From: Spiroplasma sp. SV19
GTDB lineage: Bacteria; Bacillota_I; Bacilli_A; Mycoplasmatales; Mycoplasmataceae
Length of the DNA stretch: 64,000 bases
Assembly: GCF_030060925.1 (NCBI RefSeq)
Contig: NZ_CP045455.1
Span: forward strand, 1,178,001 to 1,242,000
Reading direction: 5' to 3'
Position 1 is the stretch's first letter. Every line of letters starts with the position of its first letter. A program made the position numbers and the translations under genes. Under the pieces are notes generated by a model. That model was not told where the DNA came from. It searched no databases and saw only the letters and a list, made by a program, of their open reading frames with translations. Shown here piece by piece: positions 4,897-63,900 of this stretch.

Positions 4897-5643
4897 ATGC
4901 AGTTTATAAACAAACAACCTGACCAATTATTTGCTGAATTAAAAAAGTTTTTTAAACAATATAATATTTTGTTGCAAGAGCAAAAATATTATTTAGAGGC
5001 TTTAACGCATAATTCTTATGCTAATGAAAATAATTTAAATTATACTTATCAACGAATGGAATTCTTAGGTGATGCTATTCTTGCAAAAGAGATTTCATTA
5101 TATTTATTTTTAACTTTTCCTGACAAGAATGAGGGAGAAATTACTAATTTACGGAGCAAAGTGGTTCGGGAAGGGACCCTAGCAGAATTAGTACGGCAAA
5201 TGAATTGGGCTCCTTTTTTATTGTTAGGAAAAGGTGAGATTAAAACAAAAGGCTATGAAAAAAATCGTATTTTAGCAGATATTTACGAATCAATGCTAGC
5301 GGCGTTGTACCTTGACTTAGGAGAAGAAACAGTTCGGACATTTATTGATCAAACTTTAATTAAAATGGTTTCAAACCCCGGTTTTTTTGATCAAATTCGT
5401 GATTACAAAACGGAGTTACAAGAGTTTTTACAAGCTGGTGATGTCCGCACATTAGAATATAAGTTGGTAAAAGAATCACCACCATTAGAAGGCAATCGTG
5501 TATTGTATACTATGATAGCGGAAATTGATGGAATTCGTTATGGCGAGGGCCATGGTTATACCCACAAGGAGGCAGAACAATTAGCGGCACGAGACGCTTT
5601 ACAAAAATTAGCAAAAAATCCAAAATATAACTTTGAAAAATAA
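4897..5643 (+). CDS. rnc: Ribonuclease III
   Basis: Double-strand-specific endoribonuclease that matures rRNA precursors and cuts structured mRNAs. The 248-residue protein has the catalytic RIIID domain with the signature RMEFLGDAILA (acidic residues Glu55 and Asp59) and the second acidic cluster in ILADIYESMLAALYLD. A C-terminal double-stranded-RNA-binding domain follows (about 165-242, ending in KEAEQLAARDALQKL). AAGGAGG lies 8 bases ahead of the ATG, inside the end of plsX. A second, shorter RNase III-domain gene lacking the dsRBD is at 53751-54206. Identification is firm. Confidence 0.96.
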   Translation: MQFINKQPDQLFAELKKFFKQYNILLQEQKYYLEALTHNSYANENNLNYTYQRMEFLGDAILAKEISLYLFLTFPDKNEGEITNLRSKVVREGTLAELVRQMNWAPFLLLGKGEIKTKGYEKNRILADIYESMLAALYLDLGEETVRTFIDQTLIKMVSNPGFFDQIRDYKTELQEFLQAGDVRTLEYKLVKESPPLEGNRVLYTMIAEIDGIRYGEGHGYTHKEAEQLAARDALQKLAKNPKYNFEK

Positions 5644-49722: not shown

Positions 49723-52014
49723 TGGATAGTTCCTCAAGTATTCAAGTAAAACCAACAGAGTATAAAAAACCAGAGCAAATTAAATCTTTTGGCAAAATTA
49801 AGAAACTTATTAAGGGAAAAGATTATCTTACTTTTCAATATGAAAATGGCAATTTACTAGTAGCGTTTTATCAAAACATCATTCGCTTGAATTTTTATCA
49901 TGCTGATAAAATGACTCTTGATTCTGATATTATTTTATTACCAAGACAACAAAATTATCAAGTAGACAACCAACAAGATAATTACATGGTTGGTTATAAA
50001 GACTATTTGGTCAAGGTATCAACTGCAATAGTGCAAATTTTTTACCAAGAACAAGAAATCTTTACTGCTCCAATTCCAAACTTTGTTGATGATCGTCTAA
50101 CAATTAAAGTTAAAACTAAACCAGATGTTCGTTATTTTGGTTTTGGTGAAAAACCAGGACAAGTTCTTAATAAAAAAGGAACTAAAACAAGTAATTGAGC
50201 TACAGATATTTATGCTCCCCATTGTGAAATTAATCAAGAAATGTATACGGCAATTAATTTTAGTATTTTAAATTATCATTTTAATAGTAATAAAGGAATT
50301 TTTGTTGATAATCCTAGTCGGGTCTTTTATGATATGACGAATGATAATGAATTTAAGATTGCAGTTGACCAAAATAGTTTGGATTTATATTTTATTGGGG
50401 GGTTAACAATCAAAGATATTATTACAAATTATACCAATTTAACAGGAAAACCATTTTTACCACCAAAATGAGCCTTAGGACATCATCAATCACGTCATAC
50501 TTATCAAAATGAAAATGAATTCTTAAAGATTATTGAAAATTATCACAAATTTAATTTACCATTATCAGCAATTTATTTAGATATTCTTTATATGGATCGG
50601 TACCGTGTTTTTACTTTTGACCAAGAAAGATTTCCAAATATTAAAAAAATTATTGCACAATTAATAGATAAAAAGATTAATACTGTCCCAATTGTTGATC
50701 CAGGGATTGCCATTGCTGAAGATAATCAGGTTTATAATGATGGTTGTAAAAAAGATATGTTTGTTTATCGTGATAAAACCCGAACAGAATATGAAACTGG
50801 TGAAGTTTGGCCCGGTAATTGTGTTTTCCCAGATTTGTTTAACCCAAAAGTACAAAAATGGTGAGGAGAATTACATAAGTTTTATACTGATTTAGGAATT
50901 ACTGGGATTTGAAATGATATGAATGAACCAGCAGTTTTTAATGCTGCAAAAACAATTAGTGGTGATGCAGTTCATCAAACAACAACCGGTTTACAATTAC
51001 ACAAAGAAGTTCATAATAAATATGGTTTTTATACATCAGTAGCAACTTATCATGGGTTAAAAACCTTATTGGCAAAAGCTAATTTACGCCCTTTTTTAAT
51101 CACAAGAAGTGCATATGCTGGTAGTCAAAAATATGCTACTGTGTGAACAGGGGATAATTTTAGTTATTGATGGCAGTTAAAACAAACAATTCCAATGTGT
51201 TTAAACCTTAGTTTAAGTGGTTTTAACATGATTGGAACTGATATTGGAGGTTTTGCTGGTGACAGTAATGGGGCATTGTTAACACGATGATATCAAGCTA
51301 ATATTTTCTTTCCGTTTTTACGGAATCATGCTGCTTTTGAGGCAGTTAATCAAGAACCATGAGCGTTTGGAGATAAATATTTGCAAATTATTAAAAAATA
51401 TTTATATTTAAGATATCAATTTTTACCAACAATTTATTCTCTAGCATTTGAAGCACATCAAACGGGAATTGGAAGTATTCGCCCATTATTTTTAGAATAT
51501 GGTGATGATGTAGAAACTTATAAAATTAGTGATGAATATTTACTAGGGGATAATATTTTAGTTGCCCCCATTTTAGAACAAGAACAAACACAACGGTTAG
51601 TTTATTTACCACAAGGTAATTGATATGATTATTGAACAAAAACAGTTTATCAAGGACAACAATGAATTATTGTTCAAGCTGATTTAACACAATTACCAAT
51701 TTTTGTTAAAAGCAATTCCATTATAATGAAAACTAATGAACAGCAAAAAGATGTTGATTATCAAAATGTTAACATTTATGTTTATTTAGACTCTAATATT
51801 AATAAAGATATTACAGCACAATATTATAATGATGATGGTAAAACTTATGCTTATTTAGATGATAAAGCAACTAAGTTAACAATTAAATATCATGATGATA
51901 AAGTATTTTTAATTGCAAAGAATCAATTATTAGCTACAAATGAACAATTTCGTGCCTATACAATTAAAAATGAAGGAACAAGTGAAATTCCAGTAGAATG
52001 AGTGTTTGAAAAAA

Positions 52015-52025
<11 letters not shown>
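49722..52025 (+). CDS. GH31 alpha-glucosidase
   Basis: A 767-residue glycoside hydrolase of family 31 that releases glucose from the non-reducing end of imported maltodextrins. The nucleophile is Asp399 in GIWNDMNEPA and the acid/base is Asp478 in WTGDNFSYW. RYFGFGEKPG and the PTIYSLAFEAHQTG, IRPLFLEYG and VYLPQGNWYDYW segments are typical. There is no signal peptide. It is translationally coupled to malK by a TAATG overlap, and its own 3' end overlaps the start of the next GH13 gene (the ATG at 52015 is 9 bases before its stop). About 24 TGA codons are Trp. Confidence 0.93.
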
Positions 52026-53541
<1,516 letters not shown>

Positions 53542-53726: not shown

Positions 53727-53752
53727 AAAACAGTAAATTAATACTGTTTTTT
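53727..53752 (+). terminator. Terminator of the maltodextrin operon
   Basis: AAACAGTA and TACTGTTT with an AATTAA loop and T run. The stop codon of the convergent RNase III-domain gene lies at its right edge. Confidence 0.8.
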
Positions 53753-54206
53753 AATTCGTATATTTTTTTATTAAATTATTAATAAATTCAACTGTTTTGC
53801 TCATTCCTAATTCTATATACATTGCTCCTACAATTGACTCAATAATATCACTAGCTGGTTTTCCCATATATTGTTTTTGGTTATATTCTCCTTTATTCAT
53901 TCTAAGTAAATTATCAAATTCATATTCTTTACTAATTTTTTGCTGAAATTTATTATTTGTTAATTTTTTATATTCAAGTTCAATGTCTTTAATTTCTTTT
54001 TTTGAAGTTTTATTATATAAATTAAGAGCAATGCAAAAATTTCAAATTCTATCTCCAAGAAACTCTAATTTTTGATAACTTTCTAAAGAATTGTTTTCAT
54101 TAACACAGCCTTTGGTAGTGCATGCATTTGATCATAAAGATTCATTACTTATATAAATGCCTAATTTTTCCATAAATTCTTTTACTTTATTAAATGTTCA
54201 ATTCAT
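53751..54206 (-). CDS. Stand-alone RNase III-domain protein without dsRBD
   Basis: A 151-residue protein containing only the RNase III catalytic fold. The signature YQKLEFLGDRIWNF holds the first acidic pair and SDIIESIVGAMYIELG the second, so the catalytic carboxylates look complete. No double-stranded-RNA-binding domain follows, unlike rnc at 4897. It could be an element-borne or mini-III-like nuclease. AAGGAGAT lies at good spacing before the ATG. One or two TGA codons are Trp. It borders the decayed conjugative region and is convergent with the sugar operon. Family clear; physiological target unknown. Confidence 0.8.
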
Positions 54207-54980: not shown

Positions 54981-55349
54981 AGTACTAAATAAAAAAATAA
55001 TCTTAAAAAAGAAGTAGCATTCTATGATAATTTAAATTTTTAAACTTTTATCTAAAGTTTAAAAGAGCTAATGGACTATTAAGACATAGCGAAACATAAC
55101 ACATTCTGTAGAAACTCTAATTGTTGCTTTTAATAATTCTTTATGTTATTTTTAAATGGATAATATTATATCCTTTGATAGTAAAATATCAAATCATATA
55201 AAACTATGGTAATAGCTTATTTGAAATAATTAGTTGTTATAACTTAGCAATTATTAATAATATCAAACTTTATAAATTAGAAAAAATTATTTCTATCAAA
55301 AATATTAAAATCATAATTAATAAAAATATTAATGGAGGAATTAGTTTTT
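54981..55349. other. Gene-free spacer before the lipoprotein gene
   Basis: About 370 AT-rich bases with no supportable ORF; nothing recognisable apart from the GGAGG ribosome site at the right end. Confidence 0.5.
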
Positions 55350-56240
55350 ATGAAAAATTTTTTAGCGTTGTTAACGGCAGCAGGAATAACAGCGGCTGGT
55401 GTGGGGCCAGTTGTTAGTTGTCAAACAGGTAATAATGATAGTAATAATGTTAAAGTACCAATTACAACCGAGAATTTGACTGCTTTTTTTGCGGCTAACC
55501 AGACATTTGAGTATAGGGGTGAATTTTTCTTTAAGGATAAATTACTTCAGACTCCAGAAGATACTAAACGAATGGAATCTGGTTGAGTATCAAATCTTTA
55601 TAGTTCTTTAATTAATGATATATTTAGTCAAAAATTTAATGCGTATTTTACTTATTTGCCAAACGAGTATGTTTTCAAGTTATGAAATGTAAAAACAGGT
55701 TATGAATATACTTTAAATCAAACTTATGAATTTAACTTTACCATAGCAATAAAAAGTAATAAAAATAATATAGATTTTAAGGCAGAAAATTTAGTTTTAA
55801 AGTTTACCGAAACTAAACAATTTGCTGAACAACAGTGACTTGATGAATATATTGATTACTATATTAGGTTAGGAAATGCAATGTGAATACCAAAATTTCC
55901 GGATTTTCGCCCTCATTTATTAGATAGTCCGCTTGCTGTTTGAAATGATCAATTTCCGCAGAAAAAGTATGAGGAAAATAATAATCCAGAGATTTTAAAG
56001 GCAATTTCTGAATATTATGTTCAAGCTTTTTCTGATGAGACAGATACGAATGCAAAATGATTTTATCGTGAGAAGAGAATTAGTGTTGTGGCTAATAATT
56101 ATGAGTATTTAGGGGAAATTCCGGCAGGTCTTCCTAAGGGTGTGCGTGCGAAAACAAATTTGACTTTTTCATATTTGAATAATAACCAAATAACAGCAAC
56201 AAGAGATGTAGAACTATGAATGAAGTACTGATATAATTAG
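55350..56240 (+). CDS. Spiroplasma-type lipoprotein
   Basis: A 296-residue exported lipoprotein. The signal peptide MKNFLALLTAAGITAAGVGP ends in VVSC, with Cys24 as the lipid attachment site. The mature part is polar with aromatic-rich segments (NQTFEYRGEFFFKDKLLQ, FNAYFTYLPNEYVFKLW). The first of these echoes the RYEMAGSFFTKDQIL stretch of the neighbouring conjugation protein remnant. The ATG at 55350 follows GGAGG; an in-frame ATG at 55332 lies before that site. TGA codons are Trp. It is the first gene of the mobile-element-like block and is probably surface-exposed; function unknown. Confidence 0.8.
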
Positions 56241-56248
56241 AATATAAA

Positions 56249-58226
56249 ATGATAAATAAATTTTTTAAATCAAAAAAAGTTATTTCTATTTTTAGTTCAA
56301 TCTCAATTTTAGGTGTTGGAACTGTTATTGCAACTGTTTCAACAATAGTTGCTAGTAGAAAAACAGCAGATAATGTTTATTATAAATTTGATAGCAATGT
56401 TTTTCGTTCAAATGCTGCTTTAATGCAATATGTTAATAATAATATGAAAGTAGAATCATATTCAACACAAAATAATTACTATTTATATAACAATAAGAGT
56501 TATGGTATGAATGATTTTGCTAAATTGGAAGCTGATATGATAGCTAAAACACCAATTAAGGAATATCATACTTATCGTAACCCATATAATTATTTAATTG
56601 ATAGTGGTAATCAACTATCTAACCAAGTTTTAACATCAAATGTTGATCAGTTAACTTCTGTCTATAAAGGAAAGGATGGTAATGCTTATTTATCAAAAAA
56701 TGAGGCAATTCAGACTTATACTGATTTTCAGAAGGTTTATCAATTAGGAAATAGTAACAATAATGATACTAGTATTGAATTTCAAAATAAATATGAGGCA
56801 ATTCAATATTTAGAAAATATTGTCACAAAAAACTTAGAAAATAATATTCAAACTGATCGTTATGAAATGGCAGGGTCTTTCTTTACAAAAGATCAAATTT
56901 TATCATAATTAAAATCAACTACTGATATTCAATATAACTATAATGGTTATCGCTGATCAAAATTAAGTCATCCTGATTTATCACAAATGTTATTAACAGA
57001 AAGTGATAAAAATAATTATATTAAATCTTATCAACCATCAAATCAAACTTATTGGTTAAATCTATTTATATCATATTGGTGATCCAAATGGATTAATTGG
57101 TCCAACACCAGGTAATTTTGGTCCACCAGCAAATATTCTCGATTACAATATGTTTATTGAAATATTTGGAGTATTATTTATGTTCTTTGCCATTGCAATG
57201 GTAGGGTTACAATTAGTACAAAAAGTAATCGAATTATTCTTTTTATTAATAATTTCCCCAGTTGTCTGTGTTGTAATGGTTATTGATGATGGCCAACGTG
57301 CATATAAATGAAAAGACATGGTAATAGCTAAGTTTTTAGCAACAACCGCTACTTTAATTGGATTTTATGTCTTTATATCAGCTTTACAAGCAATCGTATC
57401 ATCAGGTATGGGTGGTCTTGAAGGTGGATGAGCAGCACATAGTTTATTCTTATTATTATTTATGGCCGGTGGTGGACTTGCAATGTTATCATTTTCAACT
57501 ATTATTGCCTCATTAATTGGTGAAGCAGTCGGAATTGCTGAAGGAATGTCATCGATTAAATCAACTATGGCAGCAGGAATGTTTGCAGCAGGTGCTGGTA
57601 AATTAACTGCTCGTGCATTAGGAATTGGTAAAAATAAAAAAGCTCAAAAACTACAAAATAGTCCTGGTATGGGTGGGGATATTCCATATGGTCAACAAGT
57701 GATGGAACAAAATAGAAGTATGGGACAACCAATGCCAAAAAGAAGTAGTAGTTTATATCAACGTCCTGGATTAGTTCAAACATTTGCTCGTGCAGCTGCA
57801 ATTACAGCAGGAGTATCAACAAGTATTAATACTTTACACCAAGCAAGAAAAGCTGGTGGAGCAAAAGGCTTCTTTAAACAAGTTGGTAAAGGAATGACAA
57901 GTCCTTTTGTAAAAATGGGACAGGCATTAAATCCAGCTATGGTTACAGAATTACGACAATCTAAACGTGAAACTAATAAAAAACTTATGAAATTAGCAGA
58001 TGCAAAAGTTTCAAAAATACAATCAAAAATGAAAAATATAAATTTTGATGATAAACATTATGGAAAATATTCATATAAACTAGATAAGGCATTAAAAGTA
58101 CAAAATAAAATTATAAATAATAAACGTATAGAAAAAGCAAAAACTAAATGAAAAGAAAATAATAGAAAAGCTACAGTACAGTCAGTTATGGAAAAAATAA
58201 ATGAAAAAAAAGATAAGAATATATAA
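56249..58226 (+). pseudogene. VirB6/TrbL-like conjugation membrane protein, broken
   Basis: The first open part (56249-56908) gives 219 residues: one N-terminal helix (IFSSISILGVGTVIATVSTI) and a polar extracellular region. A TAA at 56906 interrupts it, but the same frame continues (LKSTTDIQYNYNGYRW to NQTYWLN) to about 57060, where a one-base shift leads into a long frame ending at 58224. That frame has HIGDPNGLIGPTPGNFG, then about five helices (GVLFMFFAIAMVGLQLVQ, LFFLLIISPVVCVVMVI, LATTATLIGFYVFISALQ, FLLLFMAGGGLAML) and a basic C-terminal tail. This is the TrbL/VirB6 layout, close to the ICE transmembrane family of other mollicutes (Mbov_0396). Decayed by one nonsense codon and one frameshift. 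Confidence 0.68.
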
Positions 58227-58256: not shown

Positions 58257-58514
58257 ATGAAAGTTGGTGTTTTTATGGGACTAGGTAAATTACTAGGATT
58301 TGGTATCAACGAAAAAGGTTATAGAAAACAATTAGAAAAAGAAAATAAATATTTTCAAACTCATTTAGAATTGATTGAATTATTTGGTTATGAAGATACA
58401 GTATTAGAATGAAAAAAGGAAGATGAAGTAAAATATGCTTGATCATGTTATCCAGAAATTGTTGATAAAGAAACAAATAAAAATTATTATGAATATTTTA
58501 ATGTTGAAAAATAG
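58257..58514 (+). CDS. Hypothetical small soluble protein
   Basis: An 85-residue charged protein with many Lys, Glu and Tyr residues, unrecognised. Motif-like parts are MGLGKLLGFGINEKGYRKQL, then a helix-prone ENKYFQTHLELIELFGYEDTVLEW, and the end SCYPEIVDKETNKNYYEYF. TGA is Trp twice. The first ATG (58257) lies only seven bases after a TATAAT, so its message would be nearly leaderless; the next in-frame ATG (58275) would leave a 12-base leader without a clear ribosome site. It sits between the VirB6-like remnant and the PRTase gene and is part of the element. Confidence 0.6.
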
Positions 58515-58621: not shown

Positions 58622-59885
58622 ATGGTTTTAATTTTAGATGATTCAGAATTTGCAAAGAATCAATCACGTATATTTAATAGTTTAGAAATTAATAAAATTA
58701 ATGATCTTAATAATATTAAAAAATGTTTTTCTAAAATTTGTTTATTGTCAGAATTGCAGGATACAAATATTTTAGATTATTATGAATATACAAGTACAGA
58801 GTATGATTGTACTAATTCAATAATTTTAACAAAGATGAATAATATTAGTTATATAAACTTCACATCATTAATAATTAGTATATCTAATTTAGAAAATATA
58901 TGAGCAAATTATAACTGTCCTTATATTGACGGAGTTACTAAATCAATAGAAAATTTTTTTGAAGGAGCAATTTTTACATTATTAGGTGAAAAGTTTACAT
59001 ATTGAAAAAATGGAATCTATAGTTTTGAAAAACCTCCTAAGGATTTGTTGTTATCAGCAGTCATTAAAGATTTTATTGTTATGGATAAATATCCAGATAT
59101 AGAAATTGAGCATTATTCATTAGGGCGATATTTTGTAGATAAAACTAATGAAAAAAATACATTTACAAATTCTATTTATTATTATAATAGAGCTATTATA
59201 ATAAATAAATTTAATAATAATAACCAAAATCAAAATGATGCATTTAATGATTCCCAAAATGCAAAAAACTCATTTTTTTTAACAATTTTTAATCGTTTTA
59301 TAGAGTGATATAAATTAGTAGTAGATAAAGAATTTGATATAAATAATTATATTTATGGATATCCACCTGTTTTTCAATATGAACTTAATAGATTTAAATA
59401 CTTGTCAGAAAATAATATATTTGAATTATGCAAAAACCATTAAAAAGAATAAAGAACTTACTACAAAAGAAGATAGAACGAACAATTTAGAAGGTTGTTA
59501 TAAAATTAGAGAACAAATTAGTCAAGAATCTTTATTGTCTAGTAAAATTATAATTATTGATGATGTAAAAACTACAGGTGCTACACTTGAAACTTTAATA
59601 TCTATACTTTTAAATGCAGGGATACCTAGTCAAAATATTATTGCAGTTTCATTTTCTAAAGATTATAGTTATGATAAAAATTTTCCAAAATTTACATGTG
59701 ATAATCCAAATTGTGATGGAAAGCTTACTGTCGTCTTATCATATAAAACAAATAATTATGGACAAATTAAATTAAACTGTATGCCTCCAGGTATTAGAAA
59801 ATGTGATACTTATTATAAAGATTATAAAATCTCAACTTATGACTTTATTATGAAACATCTTGTTAATAATAAAAAACTTTTCTAA
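58622..59885 (+). pseudogene. ComF-like phosphoribosyltransferase, frameshifted
   Basis: The first frame (58622-59443) encodes 273 residues of a poorly recognisable N-terminal region. It ends with YGYPPVFQYELNRFKYLS; a frameshift near 59420-59440 moves the rest into frame 59355-59885. That part has YAKTIKKNKELTTKEDRTNN, the PRPP-binding motif IIIIDDVKTTGATLE, and a late cysteine set (CDNPNCDGKLTV and then CMPPGIRKC) suggestive of a zinc site. ComF/ComFC-type PRTases next to DprA-like genes are known in mobile elements. The active-site motif is intact, but the protein is split. Reconstructed length about 415 residues. Confidence 0.7.
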
Positions 59886-59919
59886 ATTAAGGTAAAATTA
59901 TTTAAAGGAGTATAGGATT

Positions 59920-61022
59920 ATGCAAAGTCAAAGAACAACAAAAATAATTAATTATTTTTATTTAATTAAATTATTTAATGGGAATAGGGATTATGCTGCA
60001 AAATTTTATATTGCACTTGATAACTTTTTAAAACTATTTTCTTCTACTAGTATAGAATATTCACAATTGTCTATATTTGATGATACATTAACAAATAGAT
60101 TTAGTATAAATGAATTAAATTTATTAGATATTTGATCAAATGATTTCATTTCAATTGTTCAATATTTAATAAAAAATAAAATAAAAATTAAGTGAAATCA
60201 GAACGAGTACACAAATGTAATAGATATAATTAAAAATAATATTAAGAGCAAATATAATAATATAGAAGTTATAAATAATATTATGGAATTTATTTCAGAT
60301 GTTAAAGATGAAATAGATATTAATAAAATTCTATATCAAAGTGGTAATATTGTTCATTATGATGATAAGTTATACCCAGAATATTTTAAAAATAATATTG
60401 ATTCACCTCCAATTTGTTTTTTTTATGAAGGTAATATTGATCTTTTGAATCAAATAAATAAAATTAGTATCGTAGGGACAAGAATTCCATCAGAACAAGG
60501 TATTAAATATACAGAAAAATAACTGAGGAATTAATTAATTTAAAATTTATTATAGTTTCGGGGTTAGCTAAAGGAATTGATTATTTGACGCATGAAATAT
60601 GTAAAAATTATGAATATAAAAATATAATTGCTGTTATTGGAACTCCGTTATCAAAATTTTATCCAAAAGAAAATAAAAATTTGCAAATATGGATTAAATC
60701 AAATGGTTTATTATTATCTGAATATGCAATATTTGAAAATACACTGAAATATAATTTTTTAAGAAGAAATAATTTTATGAGTATAGTATCTATAGCATCG
60801 CTAGTAGTTGAAGCATCGGATACGAGTGGAACAATTTCACAAGCAAGAAGTAGTTTAAAAAATGGAAGACATTTATTAACAACAAAGTTATCATTTGAAA
60901 ATAAAGAAAATAGTTGGCCATCTAAATTTAGAGATAAATATAGTGATTTAGTTCATGTATTTAATGATAGAAATGATTTTTTAATTACAATTAATTATGT
61001 TTTTAAAAAAAGTATTACATAA
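59920..61022 (+). pseudogene. dprA: DprA/Smf-like DNA-processing protein, frameshifted at an A run
   Basis: The first frame (59920-60522, AAAGGAG before the ATG) ends with INKISIVGTRIPSEQGIKYTEK, the start of the DprA Rossmann fold. The stop TAA at 60520 follows a five-A run. One extra A restores the frame that continues ITEELINLKFIIVSGLAKG and IDYLTHEICKNYEYKNIIAV, with the RRNN and ASDTSGTISQARSSLKNGRH motifs, to TAA at 61020. These are the GLAKGID, RN and SGT signatures of DprA. DprA protects and loads incoming single-stranded DNA; in a conjugative element it may guard transferred DNA. The N-terminal half is element-specific. Confidence 0.75.
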
Positions 61023-61063
61023 TTTCATTATCTTAAAGATGCTAAATTTGTAAAAAAGTCTGT

Positions 61064-61069
61064 TATAAT
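61064..61069 (+). promoter_or_regulatory. -10 box of the first structured RNA
   Basis: TATAAT about 33 bases before the long hairpin. A TTGTAA (61048-61053) is only 10 bases upstream, too close to be the -35. Confidence 0.4.
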
Positions 61070-61074
61070 TTAAT

Positions 61075-61170
61075 TGTAAAAATTAAATAGGCCATCGTGT
61101 ACTTCGAGTACCGGCAAATAAATATATACTTTTAAGTATATGTTTGTGCTGGTGTTCGGAGTTTTTTATT
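61075..61170 (+). ncRNA. Predicted small RNA or leader 1, long hairpin with T tail
   Basis: CTTCGAGTACCGGCA (61102-61116) pairs fully, with several G-U pairs, to TGCTGGTGTTCGGAG (61147-61161). Inside, AAATATATACTT (61120-61131) pairs with AAGTATATGTTT (61134-61145). The result is about 27 base pairs with one bulge, ending in TTTTTT. It lies between dprA and the next gene, beyond a -10 box. It may be a stand-alone RNA, an attenuator or an antisense regulator; no family is recognised. Confidence 0.55.
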
Positions 61171-61192
61171 TTTACATAAATATTAAGAAGTG

Positions 61193-61312
61193 GTTTACAA
61201 ATATTATTAATATGTTATTATATTAATGAGGATTGCTCATATGAGCCAGGCACTTAGAAATAAGTAGCGCACGATTAAAATCACTTCTTAGTAAAGTGAT
61301 TTTTTAATTGTG
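61193..61312 (+). ncRNA. Predicted small RNA or leader 2, three hairpins
   Basis: TTTACA (61193-61198) and an AT-rich -10 region (TATATT) precede three hairpins: GCTCATATGAGC, then ACTTA-GAAA-TAAGT, then AAAATCACTT with AAGTGATTTT and a T run as terminator. The transcript would be about 90 nt and end before the gene at 61325, or serve as its leader. No known family matches. Confidence 0.5.
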
Positions 61313-61324
61313 AGGAAATAAAGT

Positions 61325-61906
61325 ATGAATAAAGATTATCGTATATATAATATTGTATGATTTTGAAAAATACATCGAGATGTATTAGCAAAAGAGTTAA
61401 ATAATAAAAATATTAAAATTATTCAAATTAATAAAACAAGTACTGATGGAGTTGGACAATGCCATGTTACATATGCTAAAAAACGACCAGGTGTAGTAGT
61501 TGGAAAAATTGGAAATCTATATAAAGTTATTCCATTTGAAACTGTTAAGAAAAGTAGTGGAAAAGAAGTAAAATATCATCCTAATATTCATGTTAAATAT
61601 AATAATAAAGGTAGAGAAGTATTTTTAGATATTGATGAGATGTAGAATTTAACTAAAGATGAAATAATTGGCAATGATATCACACGTAATAAATTCAATG
61701 TTATCAAAGATGAAAAAGTTAAACAGGAGATAATAAATAAAATTTATGATGTACATGTTAATACACTATCATCTGTTCCAGATATTTTCATCGAAATGAA
61801 AATGCAAATTGAAGAGTTGAAAAATAAATTGGATCAAGAAAAACAAATTAATCAAGAATTGAATAATAATTTATTACAAATGCAAAACAAAGGTCGTGGT
61901 AGATAA
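61325..61906 (+). pseudogene. Element gene cut by an in-frame TAG
   Basis: A GTGAGGAAA site and ATG at 61325 open a 106-residue protein (MNKDYRIYNIVWFWKIHRDV and onward) with a repeated basic beta-strand-like core, GVVVGKIGNLYKVIPFETVKK. A TAG at 61643 stops it, but the same frame runs on with NLTKDEIIGNDITRNKF and a helical tail rich in Glu, Lys and Gln (MKMQIEELKNKLDQEKQINQ), ending at 61904. The second part has no start codon of its own in a good context. One nonsense change splits a protein of about 193 residues. Its end overlaps the traG ATG (TAATG), so both belong to one operon. Confidence 0.6.
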
Positions 61907-63900
61907 TGAAACAGAAATTAAAAGCTAAAAAACATTTGTTAATCTTCTTTACCATTTTATTTCCTTTTTACTTAACTTTTGTATTGTTTAGTTCAGCATT
62001 TCTATTATCTTTAATAAAAATAAGAAGAATAGGTTTAGATATAGTAATTGATTATATTAAAACCAATGAAAATAATACTTTATTGTATATAGTCCTATTT
62101 TCAATTGTTATTTACTTAGTTTTTGTATTTTATAAGATATTTGCAAGTAAAAGCAAAATATATAGTAAAGAAAGTAAGAATAATACATATGGTTCAGCTA
62201 AATGATTATCAGATAAAGAAATTGATGAAAAATATGCTAAAGTTGATTTATTTAATCCTAAAAATAATTATGGGATTGTTGTAAAAAGTGAAGAAAACAA
62301 AAAAGGAAAAATTCAAGTAAACATCAGAAAAGATGCACATACTATTATTGTTGCTGGTACACGAGCAGGTAAAACACAAGGTTTTGTTAAACCTACTTTA
62401 CAAGTTATGGCCCGTTGTAGTGTTAAACCAAGTTTATGCATAACTGATCCAAAAGGGGAATTGTATAGTAAAGATTCACAAATATTTAAAGATAATGGAT
62501 ATAACGTTATTAAAATTGACTTACGTAATCCAGAACATTCATATTCATGAAATGTCTTAGCAAGTGCATTTAGTAATTGGGAAGAATATTGTAGATTGGA
62601 AAAAGATGAGAAAGAATTAAATCAAAACTTCAAATCATTTTTATATAAGCAAAAAGCTATTGATTATATTAATGATATTTGTGAAACATTATTTTTTTCA
62701 ACTAATTCAAAAGATGAGTTTTGAAATTCTGGGGCACGTGATATTACAAAAGGCATCTTATTAGGAATACTATATGAAATGAAAGAAAGCAATTCTCTTG
62801 ATCAAAACAAATTTAATTTAGCAGAAATAATCCCTATCGTTAATAATATTGCAGCATTGAAGGACTACTTTCTTAGTTTACCTTCAACACATGTGGCTAG
62901 AATCGCAGCAGGATCAATTGATGCTAGTGGTGATGCTTTAAATGACATAGCTTCTACATTAAAAAATAGATTAAATAAATTTAGTGATCCAATTATTAGG
63001 AATTTAATTAGCCAAAATGAAATTGATTTATCAAAAATAATATCTGAACCTACTGTGATATTTTTAGTATCACCTGATGATAAAAAAGATAAAGATATAT
63101 TTGCCAGTTTGTTTATTACGCAATTATATAAATTATTAATAGAACAAGCAGATAATGCTAAAGGTAAATTAACTAGACCATTTTATTTTATGTTAGATGA
63201 GTTTCCAACATTAGTTATTCCAGATATGGATAGAAAAATAACTGTTAGTGGAGGTAGAAATATTTGATTCACTTTAGTAATTCAAAGTAGAACACAATTA
63301 AATACAAATTATAAAGAAGCAGCAGAAACTATTTTAGATAATTGTCATATGCATATAATTATTCAAACTATGAATGCTAAAACTGCTGAATATTATTCAA
63401 AATTTGTAGGTAAAAAAACAATTGAATCATATTCATACTCAAATAAAAATAAACAGAGTCAAGAAAAAGGAATAGAATTAATATCATCAGATCAAGTAAT
63501 GAAATTTGAAAAAAATGAAGGGATTGTAATTTATACAAATGAGAATCCCTTGCGTACTAAATTTATACCAATGTGAGAAGTAGATGATTATCCAATTGGA
63601 GCAGTTCCAGACATTGATAAAATTCCAATGACTGATGATGAATTCGCCAATAATTATTTCTTTGATTTAAGTGATTGTGTTAAAGAAAATAAGATAGAAA
63701 GTAGCAATGAGTTAGTAGAAGAAAAACTTACAGTTAAGGACCTTCAAAAACAAAAGATTGATTTAGTTACATTATTAGAAGATTTACTTGAAGAAGAAAA
63801 ATTTCATTCATCAAGAGAAATTAAAGAGCAAATTAAAGCTGTACGTATTCAAATAGATGAAATAAGTGTACAAATTAAATCATTAGTGATAGCAAAGTAA
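61906..63900 (+). CDS. traG: VirD4/TraG-type conjugative coupling protein
   Basis: A 664-residue type IV coupling ATPase that brings relaxosome-bound DNA to the conjugation channel. Two N-terminal helices (about 8-35 and 58-78) anchor it. The Walker A is GTRAGKTQG (from residue 151) and the Walker B is FMLDEFPTL, followed by the arginine-finger-like SRTQLNTNYKEAAETIL region. A charged helical tail ends the protein (TVKDLQKQKIDLVTLLEDLL and onward). Trp codons are TGA. The ATG overlaps the preceding gene's stop. It is the one intact transfer gene in the block, so mobilisation with help in trans is possible. No relaxase gene is visible in the window. Confidence 0.9.

What the first reader, a model, noticed from the sequence alone, without database searches (positions are those of the whole stretch)
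58622..61022. ComF-like PRTase paired with a DprA-like protein inside a conjugative element
The PRTase has an intact IIIIDDVKTTGATLE PRPP loop and a cysteine cluster; the DprA-like protein has GLAKGID and SGT motifs plus an unrecognised N-terminal half. Both genes are adjacent in the same direction. DprA loads RecA on incoming single-stranded DNA and ComF-type proteins act in DNA uptake, so together they may protect transferred DNA or defend the host. Both are frameshifted here, and the pair is little described in mollicutes.
Basis: partly seen in the sequence, partly recalled or inferred. Interest (0 to 1): 0.7.

Follow-up and report, generated by a model that had tools for sequence, protein, structure and literature searches.

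The report
Broken ShosTA anti-phage gene pair
A Spiroplasma conjugative element carries a decayed copy of ShosTA, a known two-gene anti-phage toxin-antitoxin system (a DprA-like antitoxin next to a phosphoribosyltransferase toxin), in a slot where related elements carry other defence genes or nothing.

Summary
Two adjacent same-strand genes, a phosphoribosyltransferase (PRTase, 58622-59885) and a DprA-like protein (59920-61022), each split by one frameshift, lie between conjugation genes. Both DprA halves match PADLOC ShosA (6e-13, 7e-30); the PRTase half matches ShosT (3e-7). In a tree the DprA falls inside the PRTase-linked clade (100/98; sister group 100/100), apart from canonical chromosomal DprA. 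The pairing recurs in 54 of 61 non-redundant viral-contig relatives and beside none of about 26 canonical-type DprA genes. E. coli ShosA and ShosT structures are solved, and the E. coli pair is published to stop T7 and lambda. Of 60 Spiroplasmataceae genomes only this one has the pair. Related elements have a TrlF-like gene (G022) or nothing (G016, G019) in the same place, and a more distant one has SIR2-HerA plus a methyltransferase beside VirD4 (G021). The copy looks like real decay: about 20 long genes in the window are open, and a neighbouring gene has an in-frame TAG. A new, probably dead member of a known kind; the modest novelty is a possible defence slot in Spiroplasma conjugative elements.

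The parts
58622..59443 (+). ShosT-like PRTase, first frame: N-terminal domain of unknown fold and start of the PRT domain (273 aa, table 4)
   Evidence: best relative L023 PRTase, 29% over 106 aa; GC3 0.10 in this frame
59440..59885 (+). ShosT-like PRTase, second frame: PRPP loop IIIIDDVKTTGAT (59547-59585) and four-cysteine zinc-ribbon-like tail (59697-59804)
   Evidence: PADLOC ShosT 3.4e-7, PsyrT 3.2e-6; Pfam Pribosyltran 9.3e-6
59920..60522 (+). ShosA-like DprA, first frame, up to SIVGTR, ending at a TAA
   Evidence: PADLOC ShosA PDLC03961 6.2e-13; Pfam DNA_processg_A 6.2e-12
60516..61022 (+). ShosA-like DprA, second frame: GLAKGID, VIGTP, DTSGT and C-terminus
   Evidence: PADLOC ShosA 7e-30; 56% to L022 and 55% to L023
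57150..58226 (+). conjugation membrane protein (Mbov_0396 / MMCAP2_0566 family, TrbL/VirB6-like), left flank of the cargo slot; begins about 180 residues into the profile
   Evidence: NCBIfam NF045889 4.5e-31, NF045848 1.8e-29; 44-55% to G019, G016, G022
58257..58514 (+). small element ORF that borders the cargo slot on the left
   Evidence: 71% over 85 aa to L202 2202-2456, at the same place in the G022 element
61061..61316 (+). conserved non-coding block (strong hairpins ending in T-runs) that borders the slot on the right
   Evidence: 80% to L202 6316-6575; fold z-score -7.2; first 136 bp (from 61048) repeated at G000:C1:1243178-1243313, 90%
61325..61906 (+). element gene interrupted by an in-frame TAG at 61643-61645
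   Evidence: intact 205-aa orthologue in G022, 66% and 41% for the two parts
61906..63900 (+). VirD4/TraG coupling protein, intact
   Evidence: Pfam T4SS-DNA_transf 3.3e-52; 42% to G019 and G016 elements

Best explanation
The pair is a decayed ShosTA system carried as cargo in a variable slot of a Spiroplasma conjugative element. In its working form the PRTase (ShosT) would be the toxin, using PRPP to disturb the nucleotide pool, and the DprA-like protein (ShosA) the DNA-binding antitoxin that counters it until a phage upsets the balance. The outcome would be abortive defence, which would also favour cells that keep the element. Family membership, the recurring pairing and the slot comparison are shown here by sequence. 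Toxin action, trigger and defence are inferred from published E. coli work. In this genome both genes are split in two frames, so the copy is most likely dead.
For: PADLOC ShosA 6e-13 and 7e-30, ShosT 3e-7. Intact closest relatives L022/L058 and L023 score ShosA 1e-63 and 2e-63 with a ShosT-matching PRTase directly downstream. Tree: the window lies inside the PRTase-linked DprA clade, 100/98, sister group 100/100, away from canonical DprA. Pairing in 54 of 61 clusters, none beside about 26 canonical-type DprA genes. Model of the intact ShosA relative (pLDDT 88.5) matches DprA 3uqz and ShosA 8zva; PRT domain of the intact PRTase relative matches ShosT 8zvc, Z 11.1. The PRTase beside a DprA in an E. 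coli P2-like phage is the crystallised ShosT, E 7e-294 over its whole length, and such a pair stops T7 and lambda (PMC9122126). Mechanism summary in PMC12593503. Slot comparison: G022, G021, G019, G016.
Against: Gene order is PRTase then DprA, whereas 50 of 54 viral relatives have DprA then PRTase. The PRTase has C-terminal cysteines (a zinc ribbon in relatives) that the E. coli ShosT (L057) lacks, and its N-terminal domain could not be identified; the fold model is poor there. The ShosT scores are modest, and the PRT domain is somewhat closer in fold to ComFC (Z 13.3) than to ShosT (Z 11.1). Both genes are broken, so nothing can be inferred about present function.
Confidence: 0.85

Rival explanations
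1. The pair is a ComF/DprA-like module that handles incoming single-stranded DNA during conjugation and loads RecA.
For: Fold: the PRT domain of the intact relative is closest to H. pylori ComFC (Z 13.3); DprA is a ssDNA-binding fold; host RecA has an open core domain; ComFC and DprA interact in competent bacteria (PMC9005727).
Against: ComF model 31 bits against a cut-off of 233; cysteine cluster at the C-terminal rather than the N-terminal end; ShosA-type DprA; the pair is common in phage contigs, where uptake is not needed; related conjugative elements lack it.
Confidence: 0.07
2. The pair belongs to PsyrTA/RqlHI, the related system in which a helicase-type toxin is paired with a DprA-like antitoxin.
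For: PsyrA and PsyrT are second-best PADLOC matches.
Against: Only the last 70 or so of 689 PsyrT positions match (the PRT part); no helicase domain in the window gene or its relatives. That the PsyrT/RqlH toxin is a helicase is from memory.
Confidence: 0.04
3. The frameshifts are assembly errors and the pair is intact and working in the living strain.
For: Both frame changes fall near short A-runs (sequence); codon-position bias is preserved on both sides.
Against: About 20 long genes elsewhere in the window, some 40 kb, are open, whereas two errors in 2.4 kb would predict about 30. The neighbouring gene carries an in-frame TAG rather than an indel, and the chromosomal dprA of this genome is also broken.
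Confidence: 0.15
4. The split genes are a programmed switch: translational frameshifting or phase variation at the A-runs turns the system on and off.
For: Both genes change frame near A-runs and keep coding bias on both sides.
Against: None of the intact relatives looked at in detail is split there; the element shows ordinary decay; no second allele was available.
Confidence: 0.03

Closest known systems
ShosTA (E. coli; PDB 8zva, 9vzo ShosA; 8zvb-8zvd, 9w2p, 9w2q ShosT; also the DprA-PRTase pair of P2-like phages)
   Same: DprA-like antitoxin next to a PRTase with PRPP loop; about 300-370 aa plus about 420-430 aa; carried by mobile elements; ShosA profile match 7e-30
   Different: Gene order reversed; C-terminal cysteine cluster (zinc ribbon in relatives) added; N-terminal domain not recognisable; sequence identity low; both genes broken
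DprA-PRTase pairs of Geobacillus phage phiOH2 (L054), Bacillus tequilensis (L061), Holdemania (L059)
   Same: Long PRTase with C-terminal cysteine cluster; same larger clade in the tree (90/73)
   Different: These DprA proteins carry an extra N-terminal domain of about 90-100 aa that looks like an HTH (by eye); order DprA then PRTase
Anaeroplasmataceae MAG pair (L022/L058) and G157 prophage pair (L023/L099)
   Same: Closest relatives: 56% and 55% over the second DprA half; sister group 100/100
   Different: Intact; order DprA then PRTase; L023 lies among genes that look like phage terminase, portal and capsid genes (by eye)
PsyrTA / RqlHI
   Same: DprA-like antitoxin
   Different: Toxin is much larger (PADLOC model 689 positions), only its PRT part matches
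ComFC and canonical DprA (natural transformation)
   Same: Fold of the PRT domain and of DprA
   Different: ComFC has an N-terminal zinc finger; the canonical DprA clade is separate in the tree and has no adjacent PRTase

Membership tests
ShosTA | DprA-like protein matching the ShosA profile | tested here: met
   PDLC03961 6e-13 and 7e-30 on the two halves; intact relatives 1e-63
ShosTA | PRTase matching the ShosT profile with PRPP-binding loop | tested here: met
   PDLC03962 3.4e-7 on the C-terminal half; loop IIIIDDVKTTGAT intact; modest score
ShosTA | The two genes adjacent on one strand | tested here: met
   34 bp apart; same pairing in 54 of 61 relatives
ShosTA | Gene order antitoxin (DprA) then toxin (PRTase); usual, not defining | tested here: not met
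   Order is reversed; the reverse order occurs in 2 of 54 viral clusters and in L050, so it is not a defining feature
ShosTA | DprA phylogeny: inside the PRTase-linked clade | tested here: met
   100/98 clade, sister group 100/100
ShosTA | PRT domain with the ShosT fold | tested here: met
   Model of the intact relative L058 against 8zvc, Z 11.1, rmsd 2.9, 159 residues; the window protein itself was not modelled
ShosTA | PRTase toxic alone, neutralised by the DprA-like partner | not testable with these tools
   needs expression
ShosTA | Phage protection | not testable with these tools
   needs plaque assays
PsyrTA / RqlHI | Helicase domain in the toxin | tested here: not met
   No helicase match in the window or in intact relatives
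ComF | Score above the ComF cut-off | tested here: not met
   TIGR00201 31.5 bits, cut-off 233.6, on the broken half; 49.9 bits on intact L058
ComF | N-terminal four-cysteine zinc finger before the PRT domain | tested here: not met
   Cysteines lie after the PRT loop (59697-59804); ComFC arrangement from PMC9005727
Canonical DprA | Groups with chromosomal DprA of the same family of bacteria | tested here: not met
   Separate clade; TIGR00732 96 bits against a cut-off of 191 on the broken half, 163.5 on intact L058

The most novel reading that the evidence does not exclude
Spiroplasma conjugative elements have a dedicated defence slot between a TrbL/VirB6-like gene and VirD4, bordered by a small ORF on the left and a conserved non-coding hairpin block on the right, in which anti-phage systems (ShosTA, TrlF-like, possibly SIR2-HerA with a methyltransferase) are exchanged and then decay.
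Probability: 0.45. Interest if true: 0.45.

Novelty: new member of a known kind. Interest (0 to 1): 0.3.

Why it matters
It extends ShosTA to wall-less Spiroplasma, where defence systems are little catalogued, and shows that conjugative elements, not only phages and plasmids, carry it there. The comparison across four related elements points to a defence slot that could be mined for more systems. The family also has a PRTase form with a topoisomerase-type zinc ribbon that the solved E. coli ShosT lacks, a lead on how the toxin might be guided to nucleic acid.

Tried and rejected
ComF/DprA uptake module: profile and zinc-finger position do not fit. PsyrTA: no helicase. Another copy in the same genome: none. 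Plasmid or phage records with close relatives: best below 45% identity. ORF 61325-61645 as a MazF/PemK toxin: no Pfam, PADLOC, NCBIfam or plasmid match. Rfam for the hairpin block: only chance microRNA matches. N-terminal domain of the PRTase: no Pfam, PADLOC, PHROG or NCBIfam match for the window half and pLDDT mostly below 50 in the relative's model; a HAD domain is seen in one distant relative (L189) but not here, so it stays unidentified. Literature search for a ShosTA mechanism paper: the primary paper (Pu et al. 2025) is not in the library; only a review's summary could be read.

Full report
What is there. The window lies at G000:C1:1178001-1242000 of a 1.46-Mb single-contig genome. It reads in table 4, and the nearest plasmid relatives of its VirD4 are from Spiroplasma; I take it to be a Spiroplasma. 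At 58622-61022 two genes run in the same direction. The PRTase begins at 58622, hits a stop at 59443 and goes on in another frame to 59885. The DprA-like gene begins at 59920, hits a stop at 60522 and goes on in another frame to 61022. Each is preceded by a purine-rich ribosome-binding-type sequence (AGAAGGA and AAAGGAG). Third-position GC is about 0.1 in all four pieces in the stated frames, against 0.21-0.32 at the other positions, so both frames of each gene were coding.

What family. Both DprA halves match Pfam DNA_processg_A (6e-12, 3e-23), but the best defence-library match is ShosA (6e-13, 7e-30), and the second PRTase half matches ShosT (3e-7) ahead of PsyrT (3e-6). The closest intact relatives, 56% and 55% over the second DprA half, are an Anaeroplasmataceae MAG (L022, the same contig as L058) and a prophage-like region in G157 (L023/L099). 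Their DprA proteins score ShosA at 1e-63 and 2e-63, and each is followed at once by a PRTase that matches ShosT and PsyrT. In a 45-row tree the window protein (second half only) lies with L022 and L023 (100/100) inside the PRTase-linked clade (100/98), and the chromosomal DprA proteins of the same bacterial family lie in the other, canonical clade.

Is the pairing general? In viral contigs, ShosA-like hits collapse to 61 clusters at 90% identity. 54 have an adjacent PRTase, 50 with DprA first and 2 with PRTase first on the same strand; 2 of the 7 without one are cut off by the contig end. Of the 27 clusters from the class-level search, 4 have the PRTase (L022, L023, L024, L050); those without one are the canonical-type genes plus L025 and L026, and 4 chromosomal family genes have none nearby. 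The PRTase profile was refined on hits next to DprA, which favours finding them there, but the same profile found none beside canonical DprA. Annotated records agree: phage Riah, phage Mana, phiOH2, and E. coli and Enterobacter plasmids.

Structure. The intact L058 DprA relative was modelled at pLDDT 88.5 and matches S. pneumoniae DprA 3uqz and ShosA 8zva. The L058 PRTase was modelled well only over the PRT domain (mean pLDDT 61). That domain matches H. pylori ComFC (Z 13.3) and ShosT (Z 11.1, 10.2, 9.2) above all other entries. The PRTase of an E. coli P2-like phage that sits next to a DprA (L057) is the crystallised ShosT (E 7e-294). So the DprA-PRTase pair that Rousset and co-workers found in the P2 hotspot, protective against T7 and lambda (PMC9122126), and the solved ShosTA appear to be the same system.

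How it most likely works. Published summary: ShosT acts as a phosphoribosyltransferase and pyrophosphatase that disturbs purine metabolism, leading to DNA duplications, filamentation and death; ShosA binds DNA and counteracts it; T7 Gp0.7 is a trigger (PMC12593503, reporting Pu et al. 2025; an earlier suggestion that replication or recombination intermediates are sensed is in PMC10732053). By homology the Spiroplasma pair worked the same way when intact. Shown here: family, pairing, preserved PRPP loop, and the DprA fold in the relative. Inferred: toxicity, neutralisation, trigger, defence. Host RecA has an open core domain, so a recombination-linked role of ShosA is not excluded.

Where it sits. 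The pair lies in a conjugative element: TrbL/VirB6-like gene 57150-58226, VirD4 61906-63900, then a MobL relaxase and a TraG-type ATPase beyond the window (L096). In G019 and G016 the related TrbL-like gene is followed after 32 bp by VirD4, with no cargo. In G022 the same borders occur: TrbL 55%, small ORF 71%, non-coding block 80%, then an intact orthologue of the gene at 61325. Between the small ORF and the block, G022 has a protein with weak but consistent matches to TrlF (2e-14) and PDC-M49A (7e-16), plus an insertion sequence. In the more distant G021 element, a split SIR2 gene, HerA (3e-72) and a C5 methyltransferase lie just upstream of VirD4. ShosTA here is therefore exchangeable cargo, probably in a defence slot. 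Four comparison elements are few, so the slot idea is put at 0.45.

Alive or dead. In this assembly both genes are interrupted. Sequencing error is possible, since both frame changes lie near short A-runs, but about 20 long genes in the window are open, the neighbouring gene at 61325-61906 has an in-frame TAG where G022 is open, and the chromosomal dprA at 626090-626638 is also broken. Decay is more likely. Intact relatives exist elsewhere; no change that would restore either gene was worked out.

Novelty. The kind is known. New are the occurrence in Spiroplasmataceae (1 of 60 genomes), the reversed gene order, and a PRTase form with C-terminal cysteines, a topoisomerase-type zinc ribbon in L022, L023, phiOH2 and L189 (PF01396; below the curated cut-off in L022 and phiOH2), absent from E. 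coli ShosT (sequence of L057).

Noticed in passing
window 61061-61316: Non-coding block after a TATAAT-like box: one long hairpin ending in a T-run, then a second conserved hairpin region and a terminator-like stem; 80% conserved in G022, first half repeated 4 kb away upstream of the MobL relaxase gene; no Rfam family. May be a leader or attenuator controlling element genes.
   Followed up: partly
L202 2604-3869 (G022:C1:757000-771000): TrlF-like gene, apparently cut by an insertion sequence, in the slot that holds ShosTA in the window.
   Followed up: partly
L095 7597-12100 (G021:C1:500000-518000): Split SIR2, HerA and C5 DNA methyltransferase directly upstream of VirD4 in another Spiroplasma conjugative element.
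   Followed up: partly
G000:C1:626090-626638 (L204): The chromosomal dprA of this genome is broken (one TAA inside); several genomes of the genus lack a full dprA, so canonical DprA seems to be on its way out.
   Followed up: partly
window 55332-57063: Stretch duplicated at G000:C1:412-414 kb (lipoprotein gene 80%, next gene 98%, where the other copy is a full 929-aa gene and the window copy is cut to 219 aa); the left end of the conjugative element seems to have recombined here, and the TrbL-like gene lacks the start of its profile.
   Followed up: partly
window 52006-53541: The alpha-glucosidase-like gene ends in a tail ([20 protein letters not shown]) that looks like a frameshift.
   Followed up: no
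window 53751-54206: A second RNase III-like ORF on the minus strand, much shorter and diverged from the rnc gene at 4897-5643.
   Followed up: no
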